From assembly GCA_022385755.1 (NCBI GenBank), contig MU278369.1, forward strand, positions 287,675 to 351,674: a stretch of DNA of 64,000 bases, read 5' to 3'. The translations under genes were made by a program, and so were the position numbers. The notes beneath the pieces were generated by a model that was given only the letters and a program-made list of their open reading frames with translations, made no database searches and was not told the DNA's origin. This document shows, piece after piece, positions 4,000 to 36,268 of the stretch. Positions within the stretch are counted from its first letter, which is position 1, and each line of letters opens with the position of its first letter. This stretch comes from Trametopsis cervina. Its lineage: Eukaryota; Basidiomycota; Agaricomycetes; Polyporales; Irpicaceae.

Positions 4000-6900
4000 C
4001 TATGACACCACACTTGCGTTTCGACATTGCGTCCAGTGCTCTCCATGTACAAAACACGAGAGATCGAGACGAAGCGAGCGAGCGCCGGCAACCCATCGAG
4101 TGCCAGGTCTGAACAGTCCTATTTGATAATCTGGAGGAACCCAAAACAGGAGTTCATGCGAAGGGCCGACAATATATCCACTGCTACTGACCAGCTCGGA
4201 GGAATCAGTGTATGCGAGGAGTTGGGGTTCGATCGAGTCGCCAGGCTCTGGCAAACATGGCACAAGGAAAGGTGAGTTGAACAATAGTGGGGTACAGTGT
4301 GCTGGGTAACGAAGCAAGAGGACGTACCGTTATTGCGTATGGTCCATAATCGAACCGTATGGTCGAACGAGCCCGAGAGAATGCTCACGCCGTCTGGCGA
4401 AAACGAAACAGAAGTGACCTCGTGTGTGTGTCCTCTAATAGGGCCTGCAATGGGCGCACGGGTCGTAACATCCCATAGACGGATCGTGTGGTCGCGCGAG
4501 CCGGATACAAGCGTCTTTCCATCGAGTGAAAAGGCAACAGAGGTCACCCCTTCAGCGTGAGCTTCGAGAGGCTCGCCAATGGGCTCTTGCGTGTTCGTGC
4601 GCCACAATCGAATCGTTGCGTCTCTCGACCCAGATGCGATGGTGTGCCCGTCCGGGGAGAAGGCCACAGAGAGAACAAAATGATCATGCCCAAAGAGAGG
4701 CTCAGTGATGCGCTGCCTTGTCACCACATCCCATAGCATGACCGTCCTGTCATCTGATCCGGAGGCAAGATGTCGCCCATCCGATGAGAAAGCGACAGAT
4801 CTCACGTAGTCGGCGTGTCCGGTTAGAGGATGTCCCAGTTGCTTGCCTGTTAGTGCATTCCAGAGCCGAATGGTTTTGTCGTCTGAACCCGAGGCAATGA
4901 ATCTGCCGTCGGGCGAGAAGGCCACGGCGCGGACCCAGTCGGAGTGGCCAACGAGCGGTTTACATCTGAGCCGTCCTGTCTGCGTACTCCAGAGCCGGAT
5001 TGTCCGATCGCGCAAGCCCGCCGCTATAGTCCCTCCATCCGGAGAGAACACCACTGATGTCACCTCATCTGTATAACCTCGACGCAGCAGTCCCGCAGGC
5101 TCTCCCGTGCGGACGTTCCACAACCGGACTGTGCCATCCTTCGAAGCTGATGCAGCAGTCTCGCCATCTGGCGAGAACGCCACCGCGTTCACATAATCGC
5201 TGTGGCCAGTCGCGAAGCTAGGTTCTACCGGGCCGGCTTCTATCTTCCACACCCGGATGGTTTCATCGGCTGCAGCTGAGACCAGGGTATGCTGATCTGA
5301 CGAAAACGCAATTGAGCGAATTGGGCCGGAGTGGCCTCTGAGTGGATCGCCAATGGGCTGCCCAGTGTCCGCCATCCAGAGCCGTATAGTCCAGTCGGAT
5401 GAACTCGATGCAAGGGTTCGTCCGTCAGGAGAGAACACAACGCACGTAACCCCGCCTGTGTGACCTACACAAGGAGAACACTTTGGCCGCCCGGTTGCTA
5501 CGTCCCACAGCCGAATCGTGCTGTCAAATGCGCCAGATGCAACTGTTTGACCATCCGGCGAGAACGCAACCGCGTCGACACCGTCCGTGTGGCCCTCAAG
5601 AGGAGCATACATCAGTTCTTTTGTTTTCGCGTTCCAGATGCGGACCGTTTTGTCGCGCGACCCCGAGGCAAACGTTGTCCCACATGGCGAGAAAGCGACC
5701 GACATGACACGATCTGTATGACCGCTGAAAACTTCGCCAACTGACTCTGCGTCCGATACCTTCCACAGGCGGACGTTCTTGTCATCTGACCCGGAGGCCA
5801 CCGTCTGTCCGTCCGGAGAAAACGCCACCGACCGGACCCAGCCTGCATAGCCGCGGGAATGACTGCCTATCTGCTCCCCGGTGGCTATGTCCCAGAGGCG
5901 GACAGTCTTGTCAAGCGACGCTGAGGCGATAGTCTTGCCGTCGGGAGAATACGCAACCGACCAGGCCAAGGCTGCATGACCTATGAAGGGCTTCCCTACA
6001 CGTTCTCCAGTTACCGCATTCCAGAGCATGACCGTGCCATCGTGGTGGGCTGTTGCAAGGATACCGCCGTCCGGCGAAATGGCAACACTGAAGATGTCGC
6101 TGCTGGTAGCAATACGAAGGATACACCTGAGCCACTGTAAGTCTTCTTTGTTGACAACGCGAACCCCGCCCGCGTACGCGTCAGAATAGGAGCGGTGGAT
6201 GAACGACGTTTGAGGGACGTATGCCAAGGCGGAGACGTAGAGGTGAGGTGTGGAGAGGGAGATTGCAGGCATGCACATTGAAGCAAATTGCTCAATGTCG
6301 CTGAGCATCTTGTCCAGCTGGTGCAGCTGCTCATCCATGTCGGAATTTGATGTCTAATTTCACGCATTTTTCATCAGATGCATCTTCCGTGTTCTCGATG
6401 ACGGAGTACTTACCTGGATCCACTTGCGAACCTCTTTGATTCCTATGGACGCAGAGACAACAATACCAACAAGAGCCATCACTTCAAGCCAGAACAGCAG
6501 CTTCTCTTCGAGGAATGAAGACAGCGCGTCGAGCGGACACTGTTTGTGCGGGGCAGCCGTCAGATGAGAATTCCAGAACCGGCAGGCATATAGCAACGCA
6601 GGGGATATGTTTTCTTGTATTCTTCCAGCGAGGTCCGGCACATTCTTGTTGGCACGATATGACGATTCAAGACCGCAGATGTTAAACTTCAGCTGTGCAT
6701 CCATCGTACGCAGGCACGCGTTGACGAGCTGAACATGGGCGGTCACGGTGTCTATCCTGAACCGCTTGTTACGAGAGCCTCTAATCAGATGATCTCGCAG
6801 TGATGTGTGCGCGGGCTGTATCGGGCGATTGCTGTCCCTGTCAGCTACAGACACACCACGGAATAAAGGTCCAAGGTAGGGCAATATGCTGCCTGCTGTT

Positions 6901-9390
6901 CTGACGTCTTCACTGTCGGCGCCCAGCAGGTCGATCCATGCGCTCCAAGGAAGAGGCTGGTACGCGGTGACGATGAGAGCGAGCACTCGGCGAAGCTTTT
7001 CTTGCAGCTCGGCCTCGAATGCGTGTTCCTTCAATACGTTGCCGATTGTAACAACCTTGTTCATAATTGCTTCGTACAAGGACTCGAGCCCGCGAAATCG
7101 CTGTGTCTTGAGCATGAGAAACCGCTCATCTACTGATAGACCAGGGATGTCGTTCCTAATGAACTCGCAGGATGTGTATGCCCATTGAAAGGAGTTCTCC
7201 GCTTGTTCCGTTAAGTAAGGCACCCATTCGTATAGGATCGTTTCTTCCTCAGCATCGAGATGTGTGGCCAGGAGCTCATGCTCGATAAACCGCCGGATGT
7301 CGTCTGTTGCGTCTGCAGACAGAATATCCATGTGCTGGATGTGGGCCTTCCCATACAGAGCATTGAGGATGGTGGGCTCGGGTCGAGACGTGATGAAGAA
7401 CCGAACGTTGTCAGGTAAAGTGGTATCTGTGGCCAGTCGAGTGAGACAGTCGAGCAACGACTTGCGCTCTTCGTCTGCAACTTCATCCAGCGCATCGACG
7501 ACAATGACGACCGGTCCGACAAACTGAAGTTTCCGTGCTGGCTTGAGAATGAATTCGTTCAGTTGCTCCTGCGGAGATCTCGTCGTCCGCTTCTCTTTGT
7601 CAGACTTGATGACATCAACGAGAGCATCCCGCCACTCATTGTCTAACTCGGCTAGATTCCGCGATATCGTGCTGAAGAATCGATCCACCGAGCGCTCGGC
7701 CTGATTGGACGCGCTGAAGCAGAACGATGAGCCCAGACGTTTGGGTAGAGACTTGAAGTAATGTGCGATTTCATGAGCAACGGCGGACTTGCCGGAACCC
7801 GCAACACCCGTAAGAAGTATGATCCGTTTAGATCCCTCGTGGTCATGCACCCCGTGCAATCTATCGATGATACTGGCCAGGAGTGCCCGCCTTGTGCCCT
7901 CCAAACATCGCTTCTCCGGAACGCAGCCAGCGCCTTTCGCATACATCATATCGTCGAGATAGTTGCTTGACGCTAGGCACATGTCAAAGTTGTCCTTCAC
8001 AACATACACACCAGGAACTCACCAAGTTTGTCCACAGATTCGCTTACCGACCCAGCAACCTCCAAGGTACGCATCACCGTGATCTCTGTCTGAATAACCG
8101 CAGTATCCTTGAACTCATCCATGAGTGCTCGCAAACTTTGGAGCTGTTCGGCGAGCTTCCTCCTCGCAGCGCCCGAAATATTCTTGCCAGCACGCGTAGC
8201 TAAACACTCGGTGAGCATATAGCTATCTAGAGTACCAATTGTGAAGAAAACTGACCAAATTTATCCGTTCTGACGTACTCCCGGATAAGATAACCGCACT
8301 CAAGCGTTACACACGCCATCTTCGCAAAGAACTCGGCATGCGTCTCTATTTCTTCCAACGGCGTGGCCTGGCAGACAAAATCGCACGCATACTTCATTGA
8401 AGCGACAAGATCGCGGAGTTGTCGATCAGTCTTCAGCTGGTTGTTTATTACCTACAGATAATCGCATCAGCCACAAGGGTCGGAAGACATTGGATACTGT
8501 AAGCACCGCAGGTACAATCGAGAATACTTTCCAAGCCGCATGTGCGTACGGATGGATCTGCGGATGAAAAGGTAAATCGAGCGAGAAACATTCCGAATTG
8601 CAGGCAGACACACCTTCGAGATGCCCTCAACGAGTGTTGCAAATTGCTTAATACTCTCAATGACGGGCGCCCACGTATTGACAGCCTCTTGAAAGGTACT
8701 CGCAACTTGGTCGGCGTGACCATGATCATCGAATATACCCGCAATCAGGGCAGGTGCCGCAGTCATGGCTTGCACATCGTTTTGTGCATGGGAGACAGCA
8801 TCACTAACAGTTTGCGCTCTAGCCTGCTCTATGATTCTGCAACGTATGCTCGCCCTCGAAACAGCCGCTACGCTGCCATCGGCGTTGTCTGGCGGCAGGA
8901 GCTGCACGGGGGTGTCTGACAGTACTATACATGAGCATCCCACGTTGCAGGTGACGATCACAATACTTCCCACCTTGGTCAACCTCGCCGTTCAGCCTGG
9001 ACTCCACGTCTATATTAGCAGAGCCGATAACTACCTTTCCGGTGAGTAATCGGCGTCTGAATATGGTGAGTGTAATCGATGAATTGTGAGGCACGATGCT
9101 GTAAAGAAGAGTGGGTCAAATATGTCGACTCCAGACTCACTGAACACACTCACCATGGGAACTGTTCAGTCCACAATGGGCTCCTCACACGGCTAGCCTC
9201 TGCAACCCTGCTCGCACCCAATCCCCCAGAGATTGAGACAAAATATCGATGAGAACGACCAGGAAGGTTGAAGCATCGAATATCTATGGTTATCGGTCAG
9301 AAAGCTGAAGGTCGTACAATTCATAAGTGAAGACTCACCTGAGACAGTAATGTAGCGATATGGAGTGTCACTTGAAGCCGCTTCTGTCAT
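4000..9390 (-). CDS. NLR-1: C2-like / NACHT / 14x WD40 STAND receptor
   Basis: Fungal NOD-like receptor of the HET-E/NWD type, a cytosolic STAND NTPase expected to detect non-self signals and trigger a cell-death or incompatibility response. The start at 9388-9390 (MTEAASSDTPYRYITVSG) opens a chain of short exons (9.4-8.0 kb) coding a C2-like domain and a helical region (HPYAHAAWKV, then REYVRTDKF). The NACHT exon (about 7980-6412) has Walker A GVAGSGKSAVAHE near 7790, Walker B VVIVVDALDEV near 7500 and a sensor-like RFFITSRPEP. The next exon carries 14 WD40 repeats, enough for two seven-bladed propellers. The last exon ends with the family tail (ELLFWVPPDY, then LDLSCFVHGEHW) and stops at 4000. 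All frames join across about nine introns, so it looks functional. Ligand and N-terminal effector activity are unknown. Confidence 0.88.
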
Positions 9391-10853: not shown

Positions 10854-12090
10854 CTAAACTGCAAGATGTTGCCCTTCCGGCTGACATTGCATCCAGTGCT
10901 CTCCATGTGTGAAATGTGAAAGATCAAGACGAAGCCAACGTGCACCAGTAACCCATCGTCCACTGGTCCTGCAGAACCCGAATCGATAATCTGGAGGGAC
11001 CCAAAAGAGTAGTTCATTGTCAGGGCCCAGCATATAACCACTATTATCATCAAACTCTGACGAATCGGTATTGAGAACAGGCTGACTTATTGCCAATGTA
11101 GTAGCTGAGAACTCTGCAAGAGAGAAGATAGTCGAAGATGAGTCGCATGAAGGGTGAGTAGAGGATGCAGAATAGCAGGCCACAAGGACATACCGTTATC
11201 ACGTACGGCGGCTGTGACGGGTGCGCTAATTGATGGCGTAATCGCATGACTGGGCTCATGGGTGGACGGGTTGGCGTTTTCAAGCGGGGCAGAGACTGGA
11301 GTGGACGTTCCGCGAGATAGAGGATGAGTGTTGGAAGTTGAGTCGCCTGCAGGTGCACTCCACAGCCGAACCGTGTGGTCTTCCGAGCCCGAGAGGATGC
11401 TTGAGCCATCGGGCGAGAAGGCGACAGAGTTGACCCAGTGAGTGTGTCCCCTCAGAGGGCCGCCAATAGCTGCGTGTGTCGCGACGTCCCAGAGGCGGAT
11501 CGTGTGGTCACCAGAGCCAGATACAAGCGTCTTGCCATCCCGCGAGAAGGCGACAGAGAAGACCAGGCTAGTGTGACCTTTGAGAGGCGCGCCGATGAGT
11601 TGCTGCGTGTCCACACGCCACAGCCGAATTGTGCCGTCGTCCGATCCTGATGCGATGCTCGTCCAATCAGGCGAGAAGCTAACTGCACGAACAAAGCCTG
11701 TATGGCCGCGGAGAGGCTCGCCGATGGGCTGCATCGTCGTCACGTCCCACAGCATGACTGTCCAGTTGGCAGATCCTGAGGCAAGAAGTTGGCTGTCCGG
11801 CAAGAAAGCAACAGATCTTACCCAGTCGGTGTGGCCAGTGAGAGGCTTTCCCAGCTGCTTGCCTGTTACTACACTCCACAGCCTGATCGTATTGTCAGAT
11901 GAACCTGATGCGACGATCCTGCCATCGTGCGAGAAGGCCACCGAGTTGACATCACCTGAGTGACCGGTAAGGGGATCACATAGAAGCTGTCCCGTCTGCG
12001 CATTCCACAGACAGATAGTGTGATCAAATGAGCCTGATGCGATGGTCCTTCCATCGGGGGAGAACACCACTGAGTTCACTTCACCTGCAT
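10854..12090 (-). pseudogene. NLR-2, 3' part: WD40 repeats 9-14 and C-terminal tail
   Basis: Downstream half of an NLR gene split by the transposon at 12091-18875. It reads six clean WD40 repeats (the first begins EVNSVVFSPDGRTIASGS), a linker, an intron (near 11100-11190) and the family tail (DNELLFWVPPDYRFG, LDLSHFTHGEHWMQC), stopping at 10854. No internal stop or frameshift is visible. The right-hand nine bases (12082-12090, CACCTGCAT) are one copy of the target-site duplication. With 18876-21256 it makes up one interrupted gene. It has no start of its own and is unlikely to be expressed as a receptor. Confidence 0.85.
12082..12090. repeat. Target-site duplication, left copy
   Basis: CACCTGCAT directly left of the element end. 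The identical nine bases stand at 18876-18884 directly right of the other end. The uninterrupted paralogue NLR-3 has only one equivalent position (near 31977-31987), so the duplication is tied to the insertion. Confidence 0.9.
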
Positions 12091-12108
12091 TAGTCTCGAA
12101 CCAGACGT
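12091..12108. repeat. Left terminal inverted repeat
   Basis: TAGTCTCGAACCAGACGT. The reverse complement of 18858-18875 is TAGTCTCGGTCCAGACGT, two mismatches in 18. The repeat begins immediately after the target-site duplication. Confidence 0.9.
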
Positions 12109-12205
12109 CCTAGTGGTTGCGGTCGCCAGGGCTCCCGCTCGTGGTCATTTCCCCTTCGGGTCAGGACGGCTAGCGCCCAAGGAAGAACCACTATAGGACG
12201 TCTGG
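12101..12205. repeat. Left subterminal hairpin
   Basis: CCAGACGTCCTAGTGGTT (12101-12118) is repeated in inverted form at 12186-12205, with a two-base TA bulge in the second arm and a loop of about 67 bases. The outer arm starts inside the terminal repeat, so the terminal repeat could fold back on an internal copy. The loop is GC-rich. It may be a transposase-binding or strand-processing structure; that role is inference. Confidence 0.8.
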
Positions 12206-12238
12206 TGCACACGGTAGAGAGGGGTGGGGGTCATGCCA
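12206..12238. repeat. Left inner inverted repeat (33 bp)
   Basis: It begins TGCACACGGTAGAGAGGGG and matches the reverse complement of 18747-18779 at 31 of 33 positions. It sits directly inside the hairpin on both ends, giving a two-tier repeat architecture: outer repeat, hairpin, inner repeat. Confidence 0.88.
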
Positions 12239-12396
12239 CGTTTCGCGGATCAAAAGGAAATGAGAAACTTTTTGATTCAGCGGCTATCTTATCTAGAGGC
12301 GGGGCGCGCTGGCGCATCAATGTATTTACTGTTTGTCTCAATCGTTGTCGTCTCCTCCCTTGTCCCCCACGCGTGAAATCTTGCGGAATTGCAAGT

Positions 12397-15300
12397 ATGA
12401 GTTCTGACCTCGAGTATGAGGACTTTTCCAGATTTCCCCCATCTCCTATTCATGCGGTACAGCATCCTCCGCGTACAGACACTCCTCCACCACCTCCGGT
12501 TGTGCCGCCCACCTCTCCTCGTCCCAAAAAAAGTCGCAAGACCGGCAGAACTACTGCTGAGGATAGAGGCCTACTTGAGAAACTACAGCCCGCAGCGCCA
12601 AACACCAAGGTACATGTAACTAGTTACCTAAATCTTGCTAAGGCCCGAAAGGATGCCGAGGAAGATGCAGATCGCAGTTATTCATCAAAGGAGGCCAGAG
12701 ATCGCATGCAGCTTGAAACAGCAAACCGCTGCGGTGGAAAGGTGGCAAGATGGTACCAAACTGATGCGGGGGAGGCTTTTCTCCTCGGCATGGACGTTGT
12801 CCTAATATCCGGCACCGGCTCAGGCAAGACGCTTGCATTCTTGCAAAGTCTGCTAGCGGACGCGACTGAGACCTCGAAGATCATCATTATCTCGCCCCTT
12901 AATCTCCTGGAATATGATATGGTAAGAATCATCATTAAAAACTGATTTTTGCGCTAATTACCTGACTATATGCGCCTAGGTCGATCGCTGCAATGCAATG
13001 GGGCTTCCCGCCCTTGCGGTTAACGGAGATACATGGGATCAAGAACTTCACTCCGTACGTACGCTCATATGCTTACCTGAAATATTACTGATCTGCTTCC
13101 ACTCAGAAACTCTTGGCACACGAATTCCGTGTGGTACTGACATCACCGGAGATGCTGCTTTACCATGAGGTCTTCTGCAAGCTTGTCCGTAATGCCGAGT
13201 GGACAACGCCTTTCCTCGGAACAGTGATTGATGAAGCGCACTGTATCCTAGAATGGAAGGACGATTTTCGGAAGGCCTTCAGTGAGATCGACAAAACGCG
13301 GTCCTATCTGGCAGGCAAGCCAATCTTTGCTGCCTCTGCCACTCTTACCCCTGCCATGCTCGACAATCTCCTGACCGAAATTTCGGCTTCACGCGCAAAC
13401 TCGTTTGTTCTCAACGTTGGCAACAGCAACCCGAGTATTACAACGCTTGTAGTACCCATGAAGGGCGGCGACACTGACTTCTCCGCTCTCGACTTCCTTC
13501 TCGATGAAGCCGAGCAAAGTCTCCCGCTTCAGAAGACAATCGTTTATTTCCGCACACGCGCGCAGGCAAGAGAGGCATCTATTTACCTCCGACACAAGCT
13601 TCCCCCAGGTTCCCCTTACCGCCGTCAGCTCTTTGCCCTTTTCGCGACGAAAGATGTTCGCGCCAAGGCAAGGATCATGAACATGTTCCGCTCTGGAGAA
13701 CTCGTGATTTTGTTTGCGACTGAGGCCGCCGGAATGGTAAGTGATGGCTGACTCTTTATCTACATATCTAACTGACTACAATAGGGTATGGACATTGAAG
13801 GGGTCGCCCGTGTTATACAATACATGATCTCTACTAACCTTGTTCAATGGAAGCAACACGCCGGCAGATGCGGACGTGCTGGTCAACCCGGCTTGGCAAT
13901 ACTTCTGGTCGAGCCATCAGTTTATCAGAAAGTCAGGAAACGTAAGAAGCATCGTACTAACGAGAAGGGACCGCGAAAGCGGAAGAAAATGCAAGACGAG
14001 CCTACCATCAAAGCAGAGGAGACGGAAGCATTACTGCCGCCCTCCGATGATGAGCGCCAGGGCGAGAATCAGGGACCCGTCTCCGAAGATCAGGAAGATG
14101 ATGAAGATGAAGATCCCAGGCACGACTCACCCGAAGATCATCAAGATTCGCATGACGTTGGAGCTGATATCCCAAGAGATGATCAGAGGGATGCGGAGGA
14201 CGATGAAAGGGACCATAGCGATGTGGAGCTTCAATATCGCAAGAAGGTCGACCTACACATGCGTGAGTTTGTGGAAACGGCAGACTGTCGGGACATTGTC
14301 TTGGACGCATTCTTTGACAACCCACCTAATATCAATGGTGAGCAACTTCTCCGCAACATGTCCGTTCTGATAGATTTCCTTCCCGTAGTACCCTTGTGCG
14401 ACAACTGCATACGCAAACGCGGGAATAACAAGGACGCACCTCTTTCCGGCAAGGAAGCTGCCCTGCTGGCCTTGATAACTCGCATTCAAACCCGGCCTGC
14501 TCCCTTGCGACGTGACGTCCCCGAGGGATACTCTATCAAAGAGGGAAGACGATGGAATGTGCGCTTGAAGGCCCTTACAAGCGATCTCCGGACTTGGCGA
14601 CGCGATTACTGGCGACAACACTGGAACGGAAGCGGTTGGTCTCCGGAAACTTTGATATCGGACAAGATCTTGGGTTTCATGGCTCACCAAGGCAGCATCA
14701 AGACGATGGAACAACTACGATACGCCTTTCCTGACTGGGAATTTGTTGAAGACCTCGGACCTCTAATGCTCGCTCATATTCAAGACTTCGAGACAGACTG
14801 GACTACTGCACACAACGCCGTACCAGAGGACCCGCCACCACAAAATCAAGCACAAGATCAAGTACCTGCACAAGATCAAGCCGCTATAAAAGCAGCGCAG
14901 ACACGAGACAGATATAACGCTGCAAGACGACAAGCCCGCAAAGACAAGAAGGCTCGCGCTGCGGCTGCCTCTGCTGGTCCCTCTGCTGGTCCCTCTGCTG
15001 GTCCCTCCGCCGGCTCTTCTGTCAATCTCTCTGCTNNNNNNNNNNCTCTGCTGGTCCCTCTGCTGGTCCCTCCGCCGGCTCTTCTGTCAATCTCTCTGCT
15101 AGTGCCTCTGCAGGGCGTTCAGTTGGTCCCTCTACATCTACTGCTACCTCTTCCCCTCGTGCTTCTACCTCTGCTTTTGTGATCTACCAGCCTCCTTTAC
15201 CTGGAAAGGAAGATCTTCGCATCATGTCTCCGCCCCGATCTCCCCGCCTTGTTCTCAGTCCCAAGCAGCCTACGTCTTCCAATACCCCAGATCTCCCTTC

Positions 15301-15709
15301 TTGCCCAACAGAGTGGCAGTGGAAAATAGAGTATTCCGCACTACTAAAGAGTCCCTCAGCTGCCATGAATCCATCTGCTACTACTGACGACATGCCTCCC
15401 CCACTCGCTACTGACTCTGCACCTAGACATAAACCAAGGCCAAAACCACTGCCTGTATACAACAGTTGGCGTGTCAACAGTTCAGGGGTGCCCTCATCTT
15501 CGACATCTGCCGCCTCAAGTTCGCAAAGGGTACTGCAATTTGATGCCGGCCCATCGATCGCCTCAACTGCTGTATCCGCCGTCTCAACTGCTATGTCCGC
15601 GGCCGCTTCAACTCCTGCATTTGAACCTCAAGACAGTACCCATCCTCCTGCGCCCAGGAGAAGGCCGGCCCCTCGAATGGTTAAGCGCACCTTAGAACCG
15701 CCAAAGTAG
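12397..15709 (+). CDS. RecQ-like DEAH helicase encoded by the transposon
   Basis: ATP-dependent DNA helicase of the RecQ type. I start it at MSSDLEYEDF (12397) because the upstream open frame runs through the inner terminal repeat. Four exons are visible (introns near 12922-12980, 13056-13107, 13737-13784). Motifs in order: I GTGSGKT; II VIDEAHCILEW, with the DEAHC typical of RecQ; III SATLTP; V/VI region ending QHAGRCGRAGQPG. A RecQ-type zinc region follows (CRDIVLDAFFDNPP, LCDNC), then an acidic stretch and a Ser-Ala-Gly-Pro repeat tail. The 10-N gap at 15036-15045 falls inside that repeat and shifts the apparent frame. The true C-terminus is read in another frame and ends KRTLEPPK at 15709. 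It could assist transposition, or derive from telomere-linked RecQ genes. Confidence 0.85.
14965..15110. repeat. Tandem coding repeat broken by the assembly gap
   Basis: Units of CTGCTGGTCCCTCT (coding Ser-Ala-Gly-Pro) and a longer unit ending GTCAATCTCTCTGCT occur on both sides of the 10 Ns at 15036-15045. The text just before the gap is repeated almost exactly just after it, so the assembler probably collapsed or mis-sized a repeat array. The true copy number is unknown. Confidence 0.85.
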
Positions 15710-15748
15710 CTTGAAATTCATGTATTGTAGTGTACTATATCTCTAATT

Positions 15749-18532
15749 TTATTCACCCTCCTCAAACTCCTCGTCCGTAGACCTCACTGTCACTCTCTTC
15801 GCCGCCCATCGATGTATCGCCTGCTTGATGCTTGCTGAGTCGCTGCCAAGTGCCTGGAAGTCGGGGGCACGCTTCGCGAGTGTGCGGCCGGCCCTCCATA
15901 CATGCGCGTTGCCCTTATGGTACGAGACTTGAAGGGAGGCAACATCTTGCTCCCAGGCTGGAGTGGTATGCGATTTTCCGCGGCGGAAATGGTTGATGTG
16001 GTCTTCAAAGTGATCTTTGAGCTTGCGCTGCGTAGGGATGGAGGCGGAAATCTTCTGTATGTAATCCCATGTCGCAAATGGGCCGTGAACCGCAAATATG
16101 TGCTAGTAGAATAGTTTAGTTAACTGAAATGCAACATACGAAGGGGGACTTACCTTGATGTCTCTGATGTTGTGTTCCTGGACCATGTCAAACGCCAGGA
16201 ACTTCCCTGGCAGGCCAGTCGTGTTTGCAAGCCAGCAGTGTTGCATCACAAACGAGCTGCAGCATGAATTAGCACAGATCAACGACGGGCAGTTGAAGAG
16301 AGTACACACCTTAAGTCATCGGGCCACTCGTGTAGTATCCCCTGTAGAAGCTCGAGAAGCTCCCGAGCGTAATTGTGGTTCTTGCCCCCGTGAAAGCGGA
16401 AGAAAAGGCGGGGAATAAGGTCCCGCATGCGTCCCACATCGCCGGTCTTCATGGCATTGTCGAAGTCGAGATAACAGAGAATATCCCGGCAGAACAGAAC
16501 ACTCTGCATGAAGACGTCATCCTGTTCCTTGCGGGGGATCAGCTTGAGGTCGGCGAGAGCTCCGGTCGAGGCCCTGTCATCCACAATCTTCTCCGCAAGG
16601 GCCCTGAGTTGCTGAGGGGTCCGCTGGCGTAGCTCGGCGAGGTCACTAACGTTCCCGACCACAAGCCACAGGTCGCGAAACCGGGCTTCTGCAATATGCC
16701 AAAGGGCCTCTTGCATTGTGTGGTGGAATAGACCTGCATACTGTATTAGTTAGATAGACAATAATTGAATCATACTCACCTTGCACCGAGGGACTGGTGA
16801 GTCCCTTCCGTCCGAGGACATTGAAGGCGTGTTCAAGCCCGAAAATTGTGGCGGTCTTGTAGTATTGTTTGTGGAACGAGGTGTCCTCTGCAAGTTGGCA
16901 GTGGAACCATCCGAACACCTCGAGGATCCGGTCGAACCGTTGCACAAAGTTGAAGTCTTCAGAGCGATCCTTCTTGATGGAACGGATCCGAACGACCGTC
17001 AATTGGTCACCCATCCAAACGAGAAGCCGTCGCTGGGCAGGTTCCTCTTTGATTTGGGGCCCGCTGAGGTTGCACTGTGCGAGGAAGTTGTCGAGACACT
17101 TGCGCGTGCCTTCCTGCGATGCGGACTCGACGTGGATAGTGTCCAACATGTACTGGCATAGTGCATGCGCTTTACCAGTAGGGAGCTGCTGGACTGGAGG
17201 AGGACGGCGAAGGGAGGCATGATTCTTCTGCTCGTAAGAGTCGATGTCGAAGGCGGGGGCCTGGAAGAGAAATTTGAGGACGCGGTATACAGCTTGTGCG
17301 CGGATACGAGGTCCAGCTTGATAATCCAACACGAGTATCTCGCGGGTGGTGAGAAGAGTCTGACCATGGAGAGCCCGATGGGCCTCGTATGCAAGACGGT
17401 CAGGAGCAACAATCCCCGGGGCCTTGAAGACATAGATGGTGCCGGCAGTCCCGCTGTCGAAGTGAGATTGGTGGGATCCGCGCTGTTCGAAGACCTTGAA
17501 CCCTAGATTGATGTTGTCGCATCCCGCAGCTGTCGGGTACTTCTGAATGTCGGTGTTCCTGGCCTTGTGAGATGCATCGGAAAGGGACTCGACTAGATTG
17601 TAGATCCAACGCTGGCTCATCGTGAGGCCATACGCGTTGGTTGTATCAAGTCCTTTCGCACTAAGTCCGCTGGCCTTGAGGTAAATCCCGTTGGCCTGCT
17701 GCAGTTTGTTTCGAAAGTGCGATCGCCCGTATGAGCAGATCGACACCATCATTGTAATGGGCTAGATATGCGGGTAGTAAGTGACTGAGGGATAGATTAA
17801 AAGGAGGGACTCACCGCTGTATGGTCCTTGTATTTTGCACGCTTGAGCTGCAACGGGGTTGTGCTCGCATTATGAAGGACGGTCCAGAGTGTGGGTGCTT
17901 TTGCTTGGCAGCTCCTGCTGATCTCCTTGAGGTCAATCGCGAGGAGAGTCTCTTCCGTGACCTCTTTGATGGGGGATAGGAAGACAGGCGCGAGATTGCG
18001 CATCTCCTTGTTGATGAGTAAGTTGACGTTTTCGACACACCATTGATCCATCTCCTTGCGTGCCGCCTGAGAGCATATACCTTTGTTCTGCACCCGGTCT
18101 CGGCCATTCCTCCACTTGCGGATCATCCAAGGGAATTCCGCGCAGTGTAGGAAGGCCGTCCGAGCGTACCTAAGACGCATTGAGTATTATATGCACGGAA
18201 ATATCATGTACTCACTTTATCCTTCTGTCGTCCATATCCTGGTGGTCTTGAAGCACGGTGATGTAATAGAGGAGGGTCGCGATGTCCATGTCATGCTCAG
18301 CCCGCATAGAGTTGATGATAGCAACGATTCGGCGGGCTATCTCGTGTCCCCCGAGTGAAGCAAGCTGCCTCTTGCAGTACTCCGTCCTCCCAAGTACTCC
18401 GGTGGCCCTCACCCCGGCTTCGTGCTGCGAAATGACTTCGTCCGCCTGGTCATCAACTTCGTCTGGGTGTATCTCGCTGTCTTCTGGGTCCAAGTCGTAT
18501 TCCTCGGCGTATGGCGGATTTTGAGGCGGCAT
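15749..18532 (-). CDS. DUF6589-family protein, candidate transposase
   Basis: Multi-exon gene starting MPPQNPPYAEEYDLDPED (18532) and ending FEEGE at 15749. The large central exon (about 17752-16780) carries the blocks I associate with fungal DUF6589 proteins: YPTAAGCDNINLGFKVFEQR, LLVWMGDQLTVVRIRS and EVFGWFHCQLA followed by HKQYYKTATIFGLEHAF. A later exon has FLAFDMVQEHNIRDIK. Introns near 18170-18215, 17750-17815, 16745-16780, 16255-16310 and 16105-16155 keep the frame. Conserved acidic residues (CDN near 17517, GDQ near 17007, VQEHN near 16176) are in a plausible order for a D-D-E catalytic set, but that is my hypothesis. As the only element gene without a known accessory function, it is the best transposase candidate. 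Confidence 0.75.
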
Positions 18533-18746
18533 CTAGAAGCGTTTGATATTCACTATAGGCTGGCGCACAGAAAGTAAATCAAAGACAAGAGGGGAAGTGG
18601 GATTGAAAGCTATGTCGAGGTATGTACAAGAGAAGCGGAAGGGCGCGGTGGCATCTAATCTAAACTCGGACGCCCATAGATCTACACTCGGCATCATCAG
18701 CCGAAGCTCGGGATTCGCGGAATCTGGACCCTTGGCCCATGCCACA

Positions 18747-18779
18747 TGGCATGACCCTCACCCCTCTCCACCGTGTGCA
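18747..18779. repeat. Right inner inverted repeat (33 bp)
   Basis: Reverse complement of 12206-12238 with two mismatches. It begins TGGCATGACCCTCACCCC on the plus strand. It lies between the DUF6589 start codon (18532) and the right hairpin. Confidence 0.88.
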
Positions 18780-18865
18780 CCAGACGTTTGACCGTGCTTC
18801 CCTTCTCCCATTAGCCATCGCCCTCGTCCTAAAGGAGAAATCACCATACACGGTCAAACGTCTGG
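18780..18865. repeat. Right subterminal hairpin
   Basis: CCAGACGTTTGACCGTG (18780-18796) and its perfect inverted copy at 18849-18865 with a 52-base loop. Only the first eight bases of the stem (CCAGACGT) are shared with the left hairpin. The remaining stem sequence differs yet stays complementary within each end, which suggests the fold rather than the sequence is kept. Confidence 0.85.
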
Positions 18866-18875
18866 ACCGAGACTA
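18858..18875. repeat. Right terminal inverted repeat
   Basis: ACGTCTGGACCGAGACTA, the inverted partner of 12091-12108. The duplicated target CACCTGCAT (18876-18884) follows at once. Confidence 0.9.
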
Positions 18876-21256
18876 CACCTGCATGGCCTCGGAGTGGCTC
18901 TCCTACGGGCTGCCCAGTGCGAACGTCCCACAAGCGGACCGTCCTGTCGCTCGACCCAGACACAGCAGTCTTGTTGTCTGGCGAGAATGCCACCGCACGG
19001 ACATGTTCACTGTGTCCAGCTGAACGTACACGTCCCGCCTGCGCGGGGTCTATCTTCCACATCCGAATGGTCCCGTCCTCCGCACCGGAGATGAGGGTCA
19101 GGCTGTCAGACAAGAAGGCAATTGACCGTATCCGACTGGTGTGACCCCTGAGTGGATCGCCAACTGGCTGCCCGGTGTCCACCTGCCACAGTCGTATAGT
19201 CAAGTCCATCGAGCCCGATGCAAGAGTACGCCCATCAGGCGAAAACGCAACAGACCAGACAGGGTCTGTGTGACCGGCGAGGGGGTCTCCTTTCGGCTGC
19301 CCGGTTGCTGTATCCCATAGTCGGATCGTATTATCGCCTGCGCCAGATGCGAGTGTCCGGCTGTCTGGAGAGAACGCGACTGACCAAACATGGTCTGTGT
19401 GGCCCTCAAGCGCATACAGCAGCTCTCTGGTGTCTGCACTCCAAACACGAACTGTCCTGTCGTCCGACCCCGAGGCAAATATCCTTCCACCTGGCGAGAA
19501 GGCAACTGAATTGACTCGATCTGTATGGCCGACGAGGGCTTCACCGGCTGGCTCTCTTCTTGATACATGCCACAGCCGGACTGTCTTGTCACGCGACCCC
19601 GAAACCAGTGTCTGTCCGTCAGGCGAAAACGTCACAGACATAACCCCGCCTGCATGGCCACGCAGAGCGTACCCTATCTGCTCCCCGGTTGCTACGTTCC
19701 AGAGGTGAATGGTCCCGTCATCAGAGCCCGAGGCGATGGTCGTGCCATCTGGACAGAATGCGACAGACCGAACCCAGTACGTGTGACCAATGAGGGGCTC
19801 CCCCACACGCTCTCCGGTCACCGCATTCCAGAGTCCAATTGTGCGGTCATCGTGGGCCGTCGCGATAATACGGCCATCTGGCGAAATAGCAACGTCGTTG
19901 ATGGGGCTACTTGTAGCGATGCGCATGATGCACTCGGGCCAGTGTAAATTATCTTTATTGATAACATGAACACTGCCAATGTAGAGTTTGGAATAGTGCT
20001 GATGAATGAAAGATGTAGCTGGGACATATGCGAGGGCGGACAGGTAGAGGTGAGGCGTGGAGAGGGATATAGCAGCACCGCACATCGAGATAAATTGATC
20101 CACGTCGGCGAGTGCACCGTCCAGCTTCGTTGCAGGGTCTTCAGCCGTCCCGAGTCCATCGTTGCCCTGGTAAAATCGTGAAAACTCTTGATGCACGGGT
20201 ACAAGAGTGGCAACGTACCTTAATCCATTTGCATAGCTCTTTGATGCGCCGGGATGCGGAGTCAACCATCTTGTTCAGGGCCATAACCTCGAGCCAGAAC
20301 AGCAGCCTTTTTTCCAGAAAGAGGCGGACGTCTTCTAGCGAGACCAACGACGAGGGTGCTGCTTTCAAATGGGTATCCCAGAATCGGCAAGCATACATCA
20401 GGGCCGCAGGTACGTTGTTCGCAATTCTAGATGCCAGGTCTTGAACGTCCTTATTAGGTATGTACGAGGTTTCGAGGCTACAGATGTTGAATCGTAGGCC
20501 ACCTTTCATCACCCGGAACGACAACGTCGTCAATGTCCTTTCAGCCGTCGACGTGTCGACAGTATACGAGTGGGTTCCAGCGGGGAGGGTAGCGTACTCT
20601 CGGAAAGATGTGTGCAGAGGCTGTATGGGTTCGGATGCATGTTCGAATGCGCCTCGAAGAAGAGAGCCCAGGTACGGAATAACTTCCAAAAACTCTCGCG
20701 CACCATTCTCGTCTAACAGCGCGAGCCACGCCTGCCACGATAACGGTTCACGGGCTATGAGAATTAAAGATAGGACTCGTCGGATTTTAGCTGTTATCTC
20801 CTCCTTGGATATAGACGAATCTCCCTTTGTGGTATTGTGGACGATTTCGTCGATGACTGTTTCATAGAGCTGATTTAGGGTGGAATGGCGCCCTTGTGTG
20901 AGCTTGAGGTATCTCGTCTCTGGAAGCGACCCGGCGGAGTCCTGTATGATGAATGCGCATGCCGTAGCGGCCCACTGGAACAGATTCTCCGCGCGTTCGA
21001 CCAGGGTAGGTACCCAGTCTTTGCGTTTCGCGGCCCACCCTGACCCGGCAGATGCCATCGTCAGCGTATGCTTCACATATAGCCTGATGTCATCCTGAGC
21101 GTTTTCGGCTGATATATCTATGGGGTCCACAGAAGTCAGGTTCTTGATTTTGTTGACCATACGAGGGTCGGAGCGTGAGGTGATAAGGAAGCGGATATTC
21201 GGAGGCAAGGATGTGTCGGTAGCCAAACTGGAAAGGCAGGCTACAAGGGCATCCAG
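18876..21256 (-). pseudogene. NLR-2, 5' part: truncated NACHT and WD40 repeats 1-8
   Basis: Upstream half of the interrupted receptor. It begins in the middle of a NACHT domain (DALVACLSSLATDTSLPPN, then RFLITSRSDP), runs through the winged-helix-like region and an intron (about 20169-20219), then eight WD40 repeats, ending within GEPLRGHAG at the insertion. Walker A, Walker B, the helical region and the C2-like exons present in NLR-1 and NLR-3 are absent. Just left of the first codon quoted the frame closes with TGA, and similarity to NLR-3 stops near 21257. The retained coding sequence has no internal stops, so 5' loss and the transposon are the only visible lesions. Confidence 0.85.
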
Positions 21257-30767: not shown

Positions 30768-33700
30768 CTATTGCGATGCACCTCCAGCCCGACAGTGTAT
30801 CCAGTGCTCTCCGTGGGTGAAATGTGAGAGATCGAGATGCACAGAGCGTGCACCTGTAACCCATCGAGTACTTGTTCTACAAAGTCCAGCACGATAATCG
30901 GGGGGAACCCAGAAGAGAAGTTGACCCTCGGGGCCCAGCATATAACCGTTGTCATCGGGGTCGGAAGAATCGGTGTTTAGAATGTGCTGACTTGTTGCTG
31001 AGGGACCGGACAAAGATTCTGAAAAGCATGGTCAGACATGGGTTTCATGAGGAAAGGGTAGTCGATATTGGAGCAGTGAGCATAATGACATACCATTGGC
31101 ATCTATGGCATCTATGACAGATCCAGTGATTGTCGTTGTAATGGTGTGGGTCGGTTCATTGGGGGACACATCTCTGCTCTTGAGCGGAGGAGGGAGCACG
31201 AGGGATGTCTTGTAGGATGAGGGGTGCGTGGGGAGAGGAGAGCGGCCGAAGGGCAGACTCCATAGACGAACGGTATGGTCGTTTGAGCCCGAGAGGATGC
31301 TTAAGCCGTCGGGAGAGAAGGCGACAGAGTTGACCCAGTCAGAGTGTCCCCTCAAAGGGCCGCCAATAGCTGCATGGGTCGCGACGTCCCAGAGGCGGAT
31401 CGTGTGGTCGCGAGAGCCAGACACAAGCGTCTTCCCATCCGGTGAGAAGGCAACAGAGAAGACAGAGTCAGTGTGACCTTCGAAAGGCGCGCCGATGAGT
31501 TCCTGCGTGTCCACACGCCACAGCTCAATTGTGGCCTCGTCTGATCCTGATGCGATGCTCGTCCCATCAGGCGAGAAGGCAACCGCGCGAACGTAGTCTG
31601 TGAGGCGGAGAGGCTTGCCGATGGGCTGCCTCGTCGTCACGTCCCACAGCATGATTGTCCAGTCGGCAGATCCTGAGGCAAGACATTGGCCATTCGGGGA
31701 GAAGGCAACGGAGAGCACCCGGTTGGTGTGGCCAGTGAGAGGCTCTCCCAGCTCTTCGCCTGTCACTGCGCTCCACAGCCTGATCGTCCGGTCATCTGAA
31801 CCCGATGCGATGATCTTGCTGTCGTGCGAGAAAGCCACTGAGTAGACAGCGCCGGAGTGACCGACAAGGGGTTCGCGTTGAAGCTGTCCTGTCTGCGCAT
31901 TCCACAGACGGATAGTGTGATCATCTGAGCCCGACGCGATGGTCCTTCCATCGGGGGAGAATACCACCGACCTCACTTCATCTGTATGGCCTCGGAGTGG
32001 CTCTCCCACGGGCTGCCCAGTGCAAACATCCCACAAGCGAATCGTCCTGTCGCTCGATGCAGATACAGCAGTATTGTTGTCCTGTGAGAATGCCACCGCA
32101 CTGATACCTTCACTGTGTCCAGATGAACGTGCACGTCCCGCCTGCGTGGGGTCTATCTTCCACATCCGAACGGTCCTGTCGTCTGCACCGGAGACGAGGG
32201 TCAGGCTGTCTGACAAAAAAGCAATTGACCATATCATCTCAGTGTGACCCCTGAGTGGATCGCCAACTGGCTGCCCGGTGTCCACCTGCCACAGTCGTAC
32301 AGTCATGTCATCCGAGCCCGATGCAAGAGTGCGCCCATCAGGTGAGAACACAACAGATGTAACTAGAGAGGTGTGACCGGCGAGGGGGTCTCCTTTCGGC
32401 TGCCCGCTTGCTGCATCCCATAGTTGGATCATATTATCCTCTGCGCCAGATGCAAGTGTCCGGCTGTCTGGAGAGAACGCGACTGACCAAACATGGTCTG
32501 TGTGGCCCTCAAGCGCATACAGCAGCTCTCTGGTCTCTGCACTCCAAACACGAACTGTCCTGTCGTAAGACCCCGAGGCGAATATCCTTCCACCTGGCGA
32601 GAAGGCAACTGAATTGACACCACCTGTATGGCCGACGAGGGCTTCACCGGCTGGCTCTCTTCTTGATACATGCCACAGCCGGACTGTCTTGTCATACGAC
32701 CCCGAAACCAATGTCTGTCCATCAGGCGAAAACGCCACAGACCGAACATCGGATGAATGGCCACGCAGAGCGTCCCCTATCTGCTCCCCGGTTACTATGT
32801 TCCAGAGGCGGACAGTGTGGTCAGATGAGCCCGAGACGATAGTTGTGCCGTCTTGACAGAATGCGACAGACCGAACCCAGTCCGTGTGACCGACGAGGGG
32901 CTCCCCCACACGCTCTCCAGTCACCGCATTCCAGAGCCCAACTGTGTGATCACCGTGGGCCGTCGCGATGATACGGCCATCTGGCGAAACAGCAACACCG
33001 TAGATGCTACTACTTGTAGCGATGCGCATGACGCACTCGGGCCAGCGTAACTCGTCTTTATTGATGACGCAAATGCCGCATGTGTAAATGTCGGAATAGT
33101 AGCGATTGAGGAACGAGGTCGCTGGGACATATGCGAGGGCGGACAGGTAGAGATGAGGCGTGGAGAGGGATATGGCAGCACCGCACATTGAGATAAATTG
33201 ATCCACGTCGGCGAGTGCACCGTCCAGTTTCGTCGTAGGGTCTTCAGCCGTCCCGAGTCCATCGTTGCCCTGGTAAAATCTTGAAAACTCTTGATGCACA
33301 CGTACAAGAGTTGCAACGTACCTTAATCCATTTGCATAGCTCTTTGATGCGCCGGGATGCGGAGTCAACCATCTTGTTCAGGGCCATAACCTCGAGCCAG
33401 TACAGCAGCCTTTTTTCCAGAAACAGGCGGACGTCTTCTAACGAGACCAACGACAAGGGTGCCGCTTTCAAATGGGTATCCCAGAATCGGCAAGCGTACA
33501 TCAGGGCCGCAGGTACGTTGTTCGCAATTCTAGATGACAGGTCTTTAACGTCCTTATTAGGTATGTACGAGGTTTCGAGATTGCAGATGTTGAATTTCAG
33601 GCCGTCTTTCATTACCCGGAACGCGAACACTGACAATGCTTTTTCAGCTGCCGAGGTATCCACTGCGTACGTCTGGGTTCCATTTGGGCGAGTGGCGTAG

Positions 33701-36268
33701 TCTCGGAAGGACGTGTGTGTGGGTTGTATCGGTTCAACTCCGTTCTCAGCCACACCCCGGACAACGGATCCTAGATATGGAATGACTGCTTTGAAGTCTT
33801 TCGCGTCTTCCTCGCCCAAAAAGCCAACCCAAGCTTGCCACGACAGCGGTTCACGTGCAGTGAGGATTAGGGCCAGAATGTGTTGAATTTTGGAAATGAT
33901 GACCTCTTTGGTCGTAAATGGATCCCCTGCAACTGTAATCTGAACAAGCTGGTTGAGAACCGTGTCGTACAGCTGATAAAGTCCAGGATAAGGTTGTTTC
34001 GTGAGTTCGAGGAACCTATCCCTTGGCGATCCAGGTAACCGTTGTGTAACGAATGTGCATGCAGTAGCAGCCCATTGGAAGAGGCCCTCAGCGCGTTTGG
34101 TGAGGAATGGCACCCAGTCTGTCCTAATCTCGGCCCATTCTGACTCGGGGGTTTTCGTCATGAGTTCATGCTCTATAAACAGCCTGATGTCACCTTCAGC
34201 CTCGTGCTTTGTAATATCCATGGAATACACGCTGTCCAGTTCGCGGAGCTCGTTGACCGTACGACCGTCCGGACGTGAAGTGATGAGGAAGCGGATGTTG
34301 TCAGGCAAATTCTTATCCCTTGCCAAGCTCGAGAGACAATTCAGCAGGGCGTCGCGGTCCTTCTCCGCTACCTCGTCTATCGCATCAATGACCACAACAA
34401 CCGGTCCTACAAACCCGAGCTGCCGCGCAGGTTTTAGGATAAACTCTTCAAGCTGCCGAAGTGGAGATTGAGTAGTGCGTACTTCCCTATCGGACTTGAT
34501 AACCTCGACGAGTGCATGCCTCCATTCGTCGTCCACGTCTGCAAGGCCTCGCGAGATCGTGCTTAGAAAACGGTCAACGGACCGTTCAGTCTGCTGGGCT
34601 GCACTGAAGCAGAATGAAGCCCCAAGTCTTCGGAGAACCCTGAATTGGTGAGCGATTTCGTGTGCGATAGCAGATTTCCCGGATCCGGCAACACCAGTGA
34701 GAAGTAAAATCCGCTTCGACTGCTCGCCGTTGAGCGTTCCGTGGAGTCTGTCGCTGATGTCTTCGAGTAGCTTAGATCTCGTGCCTTCTAAACAACGCTT
34801 CTCGGGCACGCAGCCTGCGCCTTTCGCATACATCATGTCATCAAGGTAGCTTTTGGCGGCTGCAAGAGCCTCAGCTACGCTTTTCTTCGAAAATGCTGAT
34901 GACTTACTCATTTTGTCCACGTCGGCTTGAACCGATTCCGTGAGCTCCAAGGTACGCATCACCGAGATCTCCGTATAAATGGCTGCGTCTTGTCCAAACT
35001 GATTCATCAGCTCTCGTAAAGACTCGATTTGGGTAGTGAGTCTTTCTCTCGCTTTCCCCGAAATATTCTTCACAGTGCGCATGGCTCGATCCAAAGTCAG
35101 TTGATAGGTTCAAGGAACCCTGGCTGAGGTCAACTCACCAAAGTTATCGGTACGAACGTACTCCTGGATCAAGTGCGCGCATTCCAGAGTCGCGCATGCC
35201 AGTTTCTCGAAGTATTCCGCGTGCATCTCGATCTTCTCCAGTGGTGTCGCCTTGCGGGCAAACTCGTGTGCGTGCTTCATCGCCGCCACAAGATTGCGAA
35301 GCTGCTGATCGGTCTTAAGCTGGTCGTTGATCACCTGCTCCATCGCTCGCAAAAAATTTCCTTTCCCGATTTCAAGATGCACGTACCTTTGGTATTACTG
35401 AAAGCACCGTCAGCGCTGCGCGAGCGTACGGATGAACCTAATAAAAAAAAGGTTCTGAAGCTATCGCGACTGCCGAGGGCATACAAACGTACCTTGGAAA
35501 TGTCCTTCACCATGGTGGCAAATAATTTGACGCTCTCGAGCACGGGCTCCCATGTAACGGCATCCTCTTCGATGGTGTTCGATATTGTCCCCGCCTCTTC
35601 AATGTCACCAAACACCGTCTGCACCAATGCCGGTGCCACGTTCATACTCTTGGCGTCAGCATCTGCGCGCAACACAGCTTGGTCTACAGCTTCGGTGCGA
35701 GCTTGCACAGTGATTTTGCATCGTATGGTGGCTCCCGCGACAAGCATCACCTTGCTGTTGGAATTTCCTGGCCGTGTGAGCTGTAATGAGATATCTAAGG
35801 CTTATATATGTGAGTAAAGCGACCCCTAGACAGCTACCGAAGTGCTTCTTACCTTGATCAACTTTGGCGTCCAGTCTCGACTCAGGATCAATCCGAGCGA
35901 ACCCAACCGCCTTCTTCCAGCCAAGTGATTGGCGTTTGTACACGGTAAGGACAACGGGGGAGTTGTCAGACGCAGTACTAACATCAGTCAATATTGTATA
36001 TGCCATTTCCGATTGTGGCGGGAGACTTACTACGTGAACTGCTCAGTCCATGCCGGGCTCTTTGACCGTATGGCATCTGCCGTCCTGTCCGTGTTTCCGC
36101 CCATAGCAGTCGACACAAAATAACGGCCTGCACGACCAGGGAGGTTATCGCATCGTATGTCTTCATCGATGATGGTCAACCAAAGATTGAGCCGAAGAGG
36201 GACGAGAGCTCACCTGAAAGTGTGAAGTACTGCTGCGTATCACGCCCACTTGTTGCGCCTTCAGTCAT
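30768..36268 (-). CDS. NLR-3: C2-like / NACHT / 14x WD40 STAND receptor
   Basis: Intact paralogue of NLR-1 with the same exon plan. The start at 36266-36268 (MTEGATSGRDTQQYFTLSG) leads into C2-like exons (AGRYFVSTAMGG, then SPAWTEQFT, VVLTVYKRQSLGWKKAVGF). Helical exons follow (KVHPYARAALTVLSVIPK, IQEYVRTDNF), then the NACHT exon with Walker A GVAGSGKSAIAHE near 34690 and Walker B VVVVIDAIDEV near 34385. Fourteen WD40 repeats run from about 33030 to 31260. The final exon has the tail GQLLFWVPPDYRAGL and stops at 30768. Junctions were checked by frame: the intron at about 35087-35140 must use acceptor GATCGAG, which restores alignment to NLR-1. Closest to NLR-2 in the WD40 region. Predicted cytosolic non-self sensor; the ligand is unknown. 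Confidence 0.88.

What the first reader, a model, noticed from the sequence alone, without database searches (positions are those of the whole stretch)
12091..18875. Complete transposon pairing a RecQ-like helicase with a DUF6589 protein
Seen: 18-bp terminal inverted repeats, exact 9-bp target duplication, and only two genes inside, arranged tail to tail 39 bases apart. Established: RecQ helicases are not standard cargo of cut-and-paste elements (Helitrons use Pif1-type; KDZ elements use other domains). Inference: this is an autonomous family in which a DUF6589 protein is the transposase and the helicase an accessory factor. I know of no named superfamily with this combination, though I cannot search.
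Basis: partly seen in the sequence, partly recalled or inferred. Interest (0 to 1): 0.92.

Follow-up and report, generated by a model that had tools for sequence, protein, structure and literature searches.

The report
RecQ-helicase DNA transposon, AcademH type
This is a recently moved jumping gene in a wood-decay fungus that carries its own likely cut-and-paste enzyme plus a DNA-unwinding enzyme; it fits an already described type (AcademH), so it is a good new example rather than a new kind of element.

Summary
Window 12091-18875 is a complete DNA transposon: 18-bp terminal inverted repeats (16 of 18 identical), an exact 9-bp duplication (CACCTGCAT) and two convergent genes 39 bases apart, a RecQ-type helicase and a DUF6589 protein. 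Joining the flanks restores a WD40 reading frame. A second long copy (C19; 9 differences in 5,531 aligned bases) and short gene-less copies sit at other sites with other 9-bp duplications. A deeply diverged cousin (C34) has the same TAGTCTCG ends, a 9-bp duplication and the same convergent pair. The DUF6589 protein is predicted to resemble Hermes, P-element and RAG1 transposases, with D306, D476 and E676 as likely catalytic residues (inference). Sequence homology of DUF6589 to a reference Academ transposase could not be tested. The result I did not find in print (one term search) is that Pfam DUF6589 is part of this transposase.

The parts
12082..12090 (.). left target-site duplication CACCTGCAT
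12091..12108 (+). left terminal inverted repeat TAGTCTCGAACCAGACGT
   Evidence: like ends recur at C19, C1, C6, C32
12100..12206 (.). left subterminal foldback: 13-bp arms (ACCAGACGTCCTA) in inverted orientation at 12100-12112 and 12194-12206
12185..12241 (+). inner inverted repeat, 57 nt, 84% complementary to 18744-18800
12397..15709 (+). RecQ-type helicase gene, exons 12397-12921, 12980-13054, 13107-13736, 13785-15709; reads SGTGSGKT, DEAH, SAT and QHAGRCGRAG (motif names recalled); no RQC, Zn-binding or HRDC domain among the Pfam matches
   Evidence: assembly gap of 10 N at 15036-15045
15749..18532 (-). DUF6589 gene, predicted DDE transposase, 844 aa; introns 18215-18170, 17814-17762, 16779-16734, 16309-16257, 16153-16103
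   Evidence: the public model P0001 (742 aa) agrees from exon 2 onwards but starts differently and lacks exon 1
18744..18800 (-). inner inverted repeat, partner of 12185-12241
18780..18865 (.). right subterminal foldback: perfect 17-bp arms at 18780-18796 and 18849-18865
18858..18875 (-). right terminal inverted repeat (reads TAGTCTCGGTCCAGACGT on the - strand)
18876..18884 (.). right target-site duplication CACCTGCAT

Best explanation
The element is an autonomous cut-and-paste DNA transposon of the AcademH type. The minus-strand DUF6589 protein is the transposase: it has a predicted RNase H-like core with a long helical insertion before the last acidic residue, as in hAT, P, Transib and RAG1 transposases. 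It would bind the inverted, partly palindromic ends, excise the element and insert it at 9-bp staggered cuts, giving the 9-bp duplication. The plus-strand RecQ-type helicase (core domains only, no RQC or HRDC domain found) is a standard accessory gene of the family, not passenger cargo. It most likely unwinds element or target DNA around the cuts. Shown: ends, duplications, restored empty site, recurrence, repeated pairing of the two genes. Predicted: the fold. Inferred: catalytic residues, end binding, the helicase's activity and role, and the AcademH filing.
Confidence: 0.85

Rival explanations
1. A distinct, unnamed superfamily that acquired a RecQ helicase independently of Academ and Kolobok, with DUF6589 as a DDE transposase unrelated to Academ's.
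For: No held paper contains the term DUF6589 and no Academ reference sequence was compared. RecQ helicases occur in more than one transposon superfamily, since Kolobok elements have them too.
Against: A RecQ-type helicase with DEAD and Helicase_C domains, 9-bp duplications and a basidiomycete host all agree with what is printed about AcademH.
Confidence: 0.1
2. A MULE or other known superfamily with 9-bp duplications in which the helicase is accidental passenger cargo.
For: MULEs commonly make 9-bp duplications and capture genes (recalled).
Against: No MULE transposase domain among Pfam matches of the DUF6589 protein. The helicase-DUF6589 pair recurs in a cousin at about 27-35% identity and on shared contigs in other species, so chance capture is unlikely.
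Confidence: 0.03
3. The helicase is the mobilising enzyme and DUF6589 is accessory.
For: Helitrons move with a helicase-bearing protein (recalled; also stated in a passage of PMC12730594).
Against: Terminal inverted repeats and fixed-length duplications are signs of a DDE enzyme (established knowledge, recalled), and DUF6589 has the predicted transposase fold; the helicase up to the gap has only DEAD and Helicase_C matches over the cut-off.
Confidence: 0.02

Closest known systems
AcademH (Academ superfamily; Kojima 2020, known here only through citing papers)
   Same: Helicase of RecQ / DEAD-Helicase_C type in a transposon with a DDD/E transposase; 9- or 10-bp duplications; present in Basidiomycota
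   Different: No difference found; transposase homology not directly compared
AcademX
   Same: Same superfamily if the filing is right
   Different: AcademX makes 3- or 4-bp duplications and encodes a nuclease; here 9 bp and a helicase
KolobokH and Kolobok-1_CCri
   Same: DNA transposons with a RecQ helicase; KolobokH is fungal, and in Kolobok-1_CCri the helicase is on the complementary strand
   Different: In KolobokH the helicase lies downstream of the transposase domain, here it is a separate convergent gene; duplications are 9 bp rather than TTAA (TTAA recalled)
hAT (Hermes), P element and RAG1/Transib transposases
   Same: Predicted fold: RNase H core with helical insertion
   Different: A DUF6589 profile matches no PDB sequence at E <= 1; 8-bp (hAT, P) or 5-bp (Transib) duplications and no helicase gene (recalled)

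Membership tests
AcademH | 9- or 10-bp target-site duplication | tested here: met
   5 exact 9-bp cases plus C1 among 12 loci examined; definition from PMC10045372
AcademH | element-encoded superfamily 2 helicase, RecQ type, DEAD + Helicase_C | tested here: met
   definition
AcademH | DDD/E transposase | tested here: inconclusive
   predicted fold resembling DDE transposases and conserved acidic residues, but no Foldseek hit at E <= 0.001 and no activity shown
AcademH | transposase homologous in sequence to Academ transposases | not testable with these tools
   no Academ reference sequence or profile at hand; Kojima 2020 not held
AcademH | occurs in Basidiomycota among other hosts | tested here: met
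   host identified as Trametopsis cervina through P0001; definition
AcademX | 3- or 4-bp duplication | tested here: not met
   9 bp; definition
[quoted passage not shown]
   separate convergent genes; definition, which also names a Kolobok with the helicase on the other strand, so this alone does not exclude Kolobok
Kolobok | TTAA duplication (recalled) | tested here: not met
   9-bp duplications of five different sequences
MULE/MuDR | MULE transposase domain | tested here: not met
   only DUF6589 found in P0001 and P0017 at E <= 0.1
Zisupton | 8-bp duplication | tested here: not met
   9 bp; 8-bp definition from PMC12730594
Helitron | no terminal inverted repeats, no duplication (recalled) | tested here: not met
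   both present

The most novel reading that the evidence does not exclude
DUF6589 elements are a separate DDE superfamily, structurally near hAT/P and RAG/Transib, that recruited a RecQ helicase independently of Academ and Kolobok. The helicase, with the palindromic ends, would then mark a helicase-assisted cut-and-paste mechanism that evolved at least three times.
Probability: 0.1. Interest if true: 0.6.

Novelty: new member of a known kind. Interest (0 to 1): 0.32.

Why it matters
It gives two near-identical long copies and short derivatives of a helicase-encoding DNA transposon in one 29-Mb fungal genome, with exact ends and duplications, so the helicase's role in cut-and-paste transposition can be tested. 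It also gives a Pfam domain of unknown function (DUF6589) a predicted job: the part of a DDE transposase that holds the second aspartate and the glutamate. Fungal genes now called hypothetical could be re-annotated as transposon genes.

Tried and rejected
Kojima 2020 was asked for by DOI and by PMC id and is not held, so AcademH features are quoted from citing papers. Six paper searches were run; the term DUF6589 found 0 papers in the held library, and only that one term was tried. One search returned nothing useful. Passages of PMC8290104, PMC12210899, PMC9970103 and PMC11075540 were seen and gave no sequence or structural detail of AcademH. A profile of 46 DUF6589 proteins finds no PDB sequence at E <= 1. 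The second protein search, with that alignment, listed 58 proteins of the 7,996 candidates scored (a capped list); its named sources are all fungi, so it could neither show nor exclude the animal members expected of Academ.

The C5 locus has a divergent helicase-DUF6589 pair, with a 26-bp inverted match outside it but no duplication. Four other rows at C34 with palindromic 'duplications' were judged to be ordinary inverted repeats.

At up to 2 mismatches the end-pattern search gives no more hits (57) than the reversed control (76), so only the 19 hits at 0-1 mismatches were considered; the control was not split by mismatch number. Twelve loci were examined for ends and duplications: window, C19, C34, C1, C6, C32, C22:484890, C18:232565, C21:189465, C10:815116, C24:352387 and C5. 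itself scanned 19 fetched stretches and reported pairs in 3; it missed C1 because its end lacks a base, and C34 because it is split over two stretches. Hits at C3, two at C4, C6:865665 and C18:506304 were not examined.

The contig comparison first used 12 of the 67 helicase hits, picked by hand, and was then repeated with 39 of 67, those with a named species, against 38 of the 88 DUF6589 proteins, again those with a named species; the result, 4 pairs, did not change. One contig length (P0147) was mistyped; its species has no DUF6589 hit, so this has no effect.

Full report
Observation. The sequence shows TAGTCTCGAACCAGACGT at 12091 and its near-complement ending at 18875 (16 of 18 bases), flanked by CACCTGCAT on both sides. 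In the surrounding 17 kb this is the only pair with a direct repeat of 8-11 bp and at least 11 of 14 matching terminal bases; at the observed level 0 of 200 shuffles give one. Each end also carries an internal foldback (13-bp arms left; 17-bp arms right), and an inner 57-nt inverted repeat is 84% complementary. Joining the flanks with one duplication gives an uninterrupted WD40 reading frame...EPLRGHAGEVNSVVFSPDGRT..., so the insertion split a WD40-repeat gene (Pfam).

Genes. The plus-strand gene has four exons with standard splice sites. Its product up to the gap matches RecQ and BLM in the PDB (best 2.9e-23) and carries DEAD (5.6e-19) and Helicase_C (1.7e-13) but none of the RecQ accessory domains at E <= 0.1. 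The 10-N gap at 15036-15045 leaves the end of the protein unproven. The minus-strand gene has six exons and encodes 844 aa. The public model P0001 of Trametopsis cervina is 100% identical over 88% of it, which names the likely host species; P0001 starts differently and lacks exon 1.

Recurrence. The left end (300 bases) has 6 matching places in the genome and the right end (176 bases) 5 (these include the window itself and the inner repeats). They resolve into the window, C19, C1 and, for the left end, C6; C32 came from the pattern search. C19 is a second long copy with its own duplication, identical over the left 1,701 bases and differing at 9 of 3,830 on the right; a 625-N gap hides part of its helicase. 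Its DUF6589 frame is open with 3 amino-acid differences. C1, C6 and C32 are short copies of about 186, 213 and 199 bp, too short for either gene. C34:191987-197508 is a distinct family: blastn finds nothing better than E 0.38, the helicase is 27-35% and DUF6589 28% identical where aligned, yet it has the same TAGTCTCG start, a 9-bp duplication, the same convergent order, and the motifs DNFN, GDRL and NYSNECMELL, which by eye match the surroundings of the candidate catalytic residues. C5 has a divergent pair without resolved ends. DUF6589 at C16 and C10 has no detected helicase within the fetched stretches, with long N runs near. In all, 12 loci were examined for ends: 5 exact 9-bp duplications, 1 (C1) with a base missing from the end, 6 without.

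Other species. The DUF6589 search listed 50 proteins and the alignment search 58, together 88; the 38 with a named species are all from fungi that I know as Agaricomycetes (taxonomy recalled). The helicase search listed 67. Both lists are capped, since only the roughly 8,000 best candidates by shared words were scored. Of the 39 helicases with a named species, 10 come from a species with a DUF6589 hit, and 4 of these share species and exact contig length with a DUF6589 protein: Irpex rosettiformis twice, Cytidiella melzeri and Phlebia brevispora. They are 4 of the 5 best helicase hits. The Phlebia pair has consecutive gene numbers. For the other three, same contig does not prove adjacency.

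What is known. Passages seen, no paper read whole: PMC3627910 (2013) lists RecQ helicase in Academ among transposon-encoded non-transposase proteins; PMC10045372 (2023) gives 9 or 10 bp for AcademH and 3 or 4 bp for AcademX; PMC10799480 (2024) ties DEAD and Helicase_C domains to AcademH and KolobokH, and says AcademH occurs as low-copy elements in Basidiomycota, Ascomycota and Mucoromycota; PMC9587614 (2022) lists Academ among DDD/E superfamilies and describes RecQ in KolobokH and, on the other strand, in one red-algal Kolobok. The original AcademH paper was not readable here. I therefore file the element as AcademH with the sequence link to Academ untested. That DUF6589 is this transposase was not found in print by the single search for the term, which covers only the held library.

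Verdict. Real, open in both reading frames apart from the gap, recently mobile, and of a known kind; the useful addition is the DUF6589 assignment.

Noticed in passing
window 15036-15045: 10-N assembly gap inside a tandem repeat (Ser-Ala-Gly-Pro-like tail) of the helicase gene; identical 55-nt units on both sides suggest a collapsed repeat.
   Followed up: partly
window 11087-12109 and 18841-20274: The insertion splits a WD40-repeat gene; two NACHT/NPHP3_N ORFs next to WD40 ORFs lie in the same window (4119-8018, 31032-35109), so this is a NACHT-WD40 (NLR-like) neighbourhood.
   Followed up: partly
genome C34:191987-197508 (L025/L026): A second, deeply diverged helicase + DUF6589 transposon with near-perfect long inverted repeats and a 9-bp duplication.
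   Followed up: yes
genome C24:351767-352403 (L033): Helicase remnant about 59-64% identical, with an end-like motif about 90 bases away but no paired end found; a public T. cervina gene model named G-alpha-domain protein (P0123) also matches the helicase over 15% of the query, perhaps a mis-joined gene model or a host-transposon fusion. That P0123 is this locus was not checked.
   Followed up: partly
genome C5:113500-118130 (L023/L024): Helicase and DUF6589 genes in divergent rather than convergent order; ends not resolved.
   Followed up: partly
window 12091-12241 and 18744-18875: Each end is itself a foldback with the CCAGACG motif in both orientations, about 80-100 bases apart; a possible double binding site for the transposase.
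   Followed up: no
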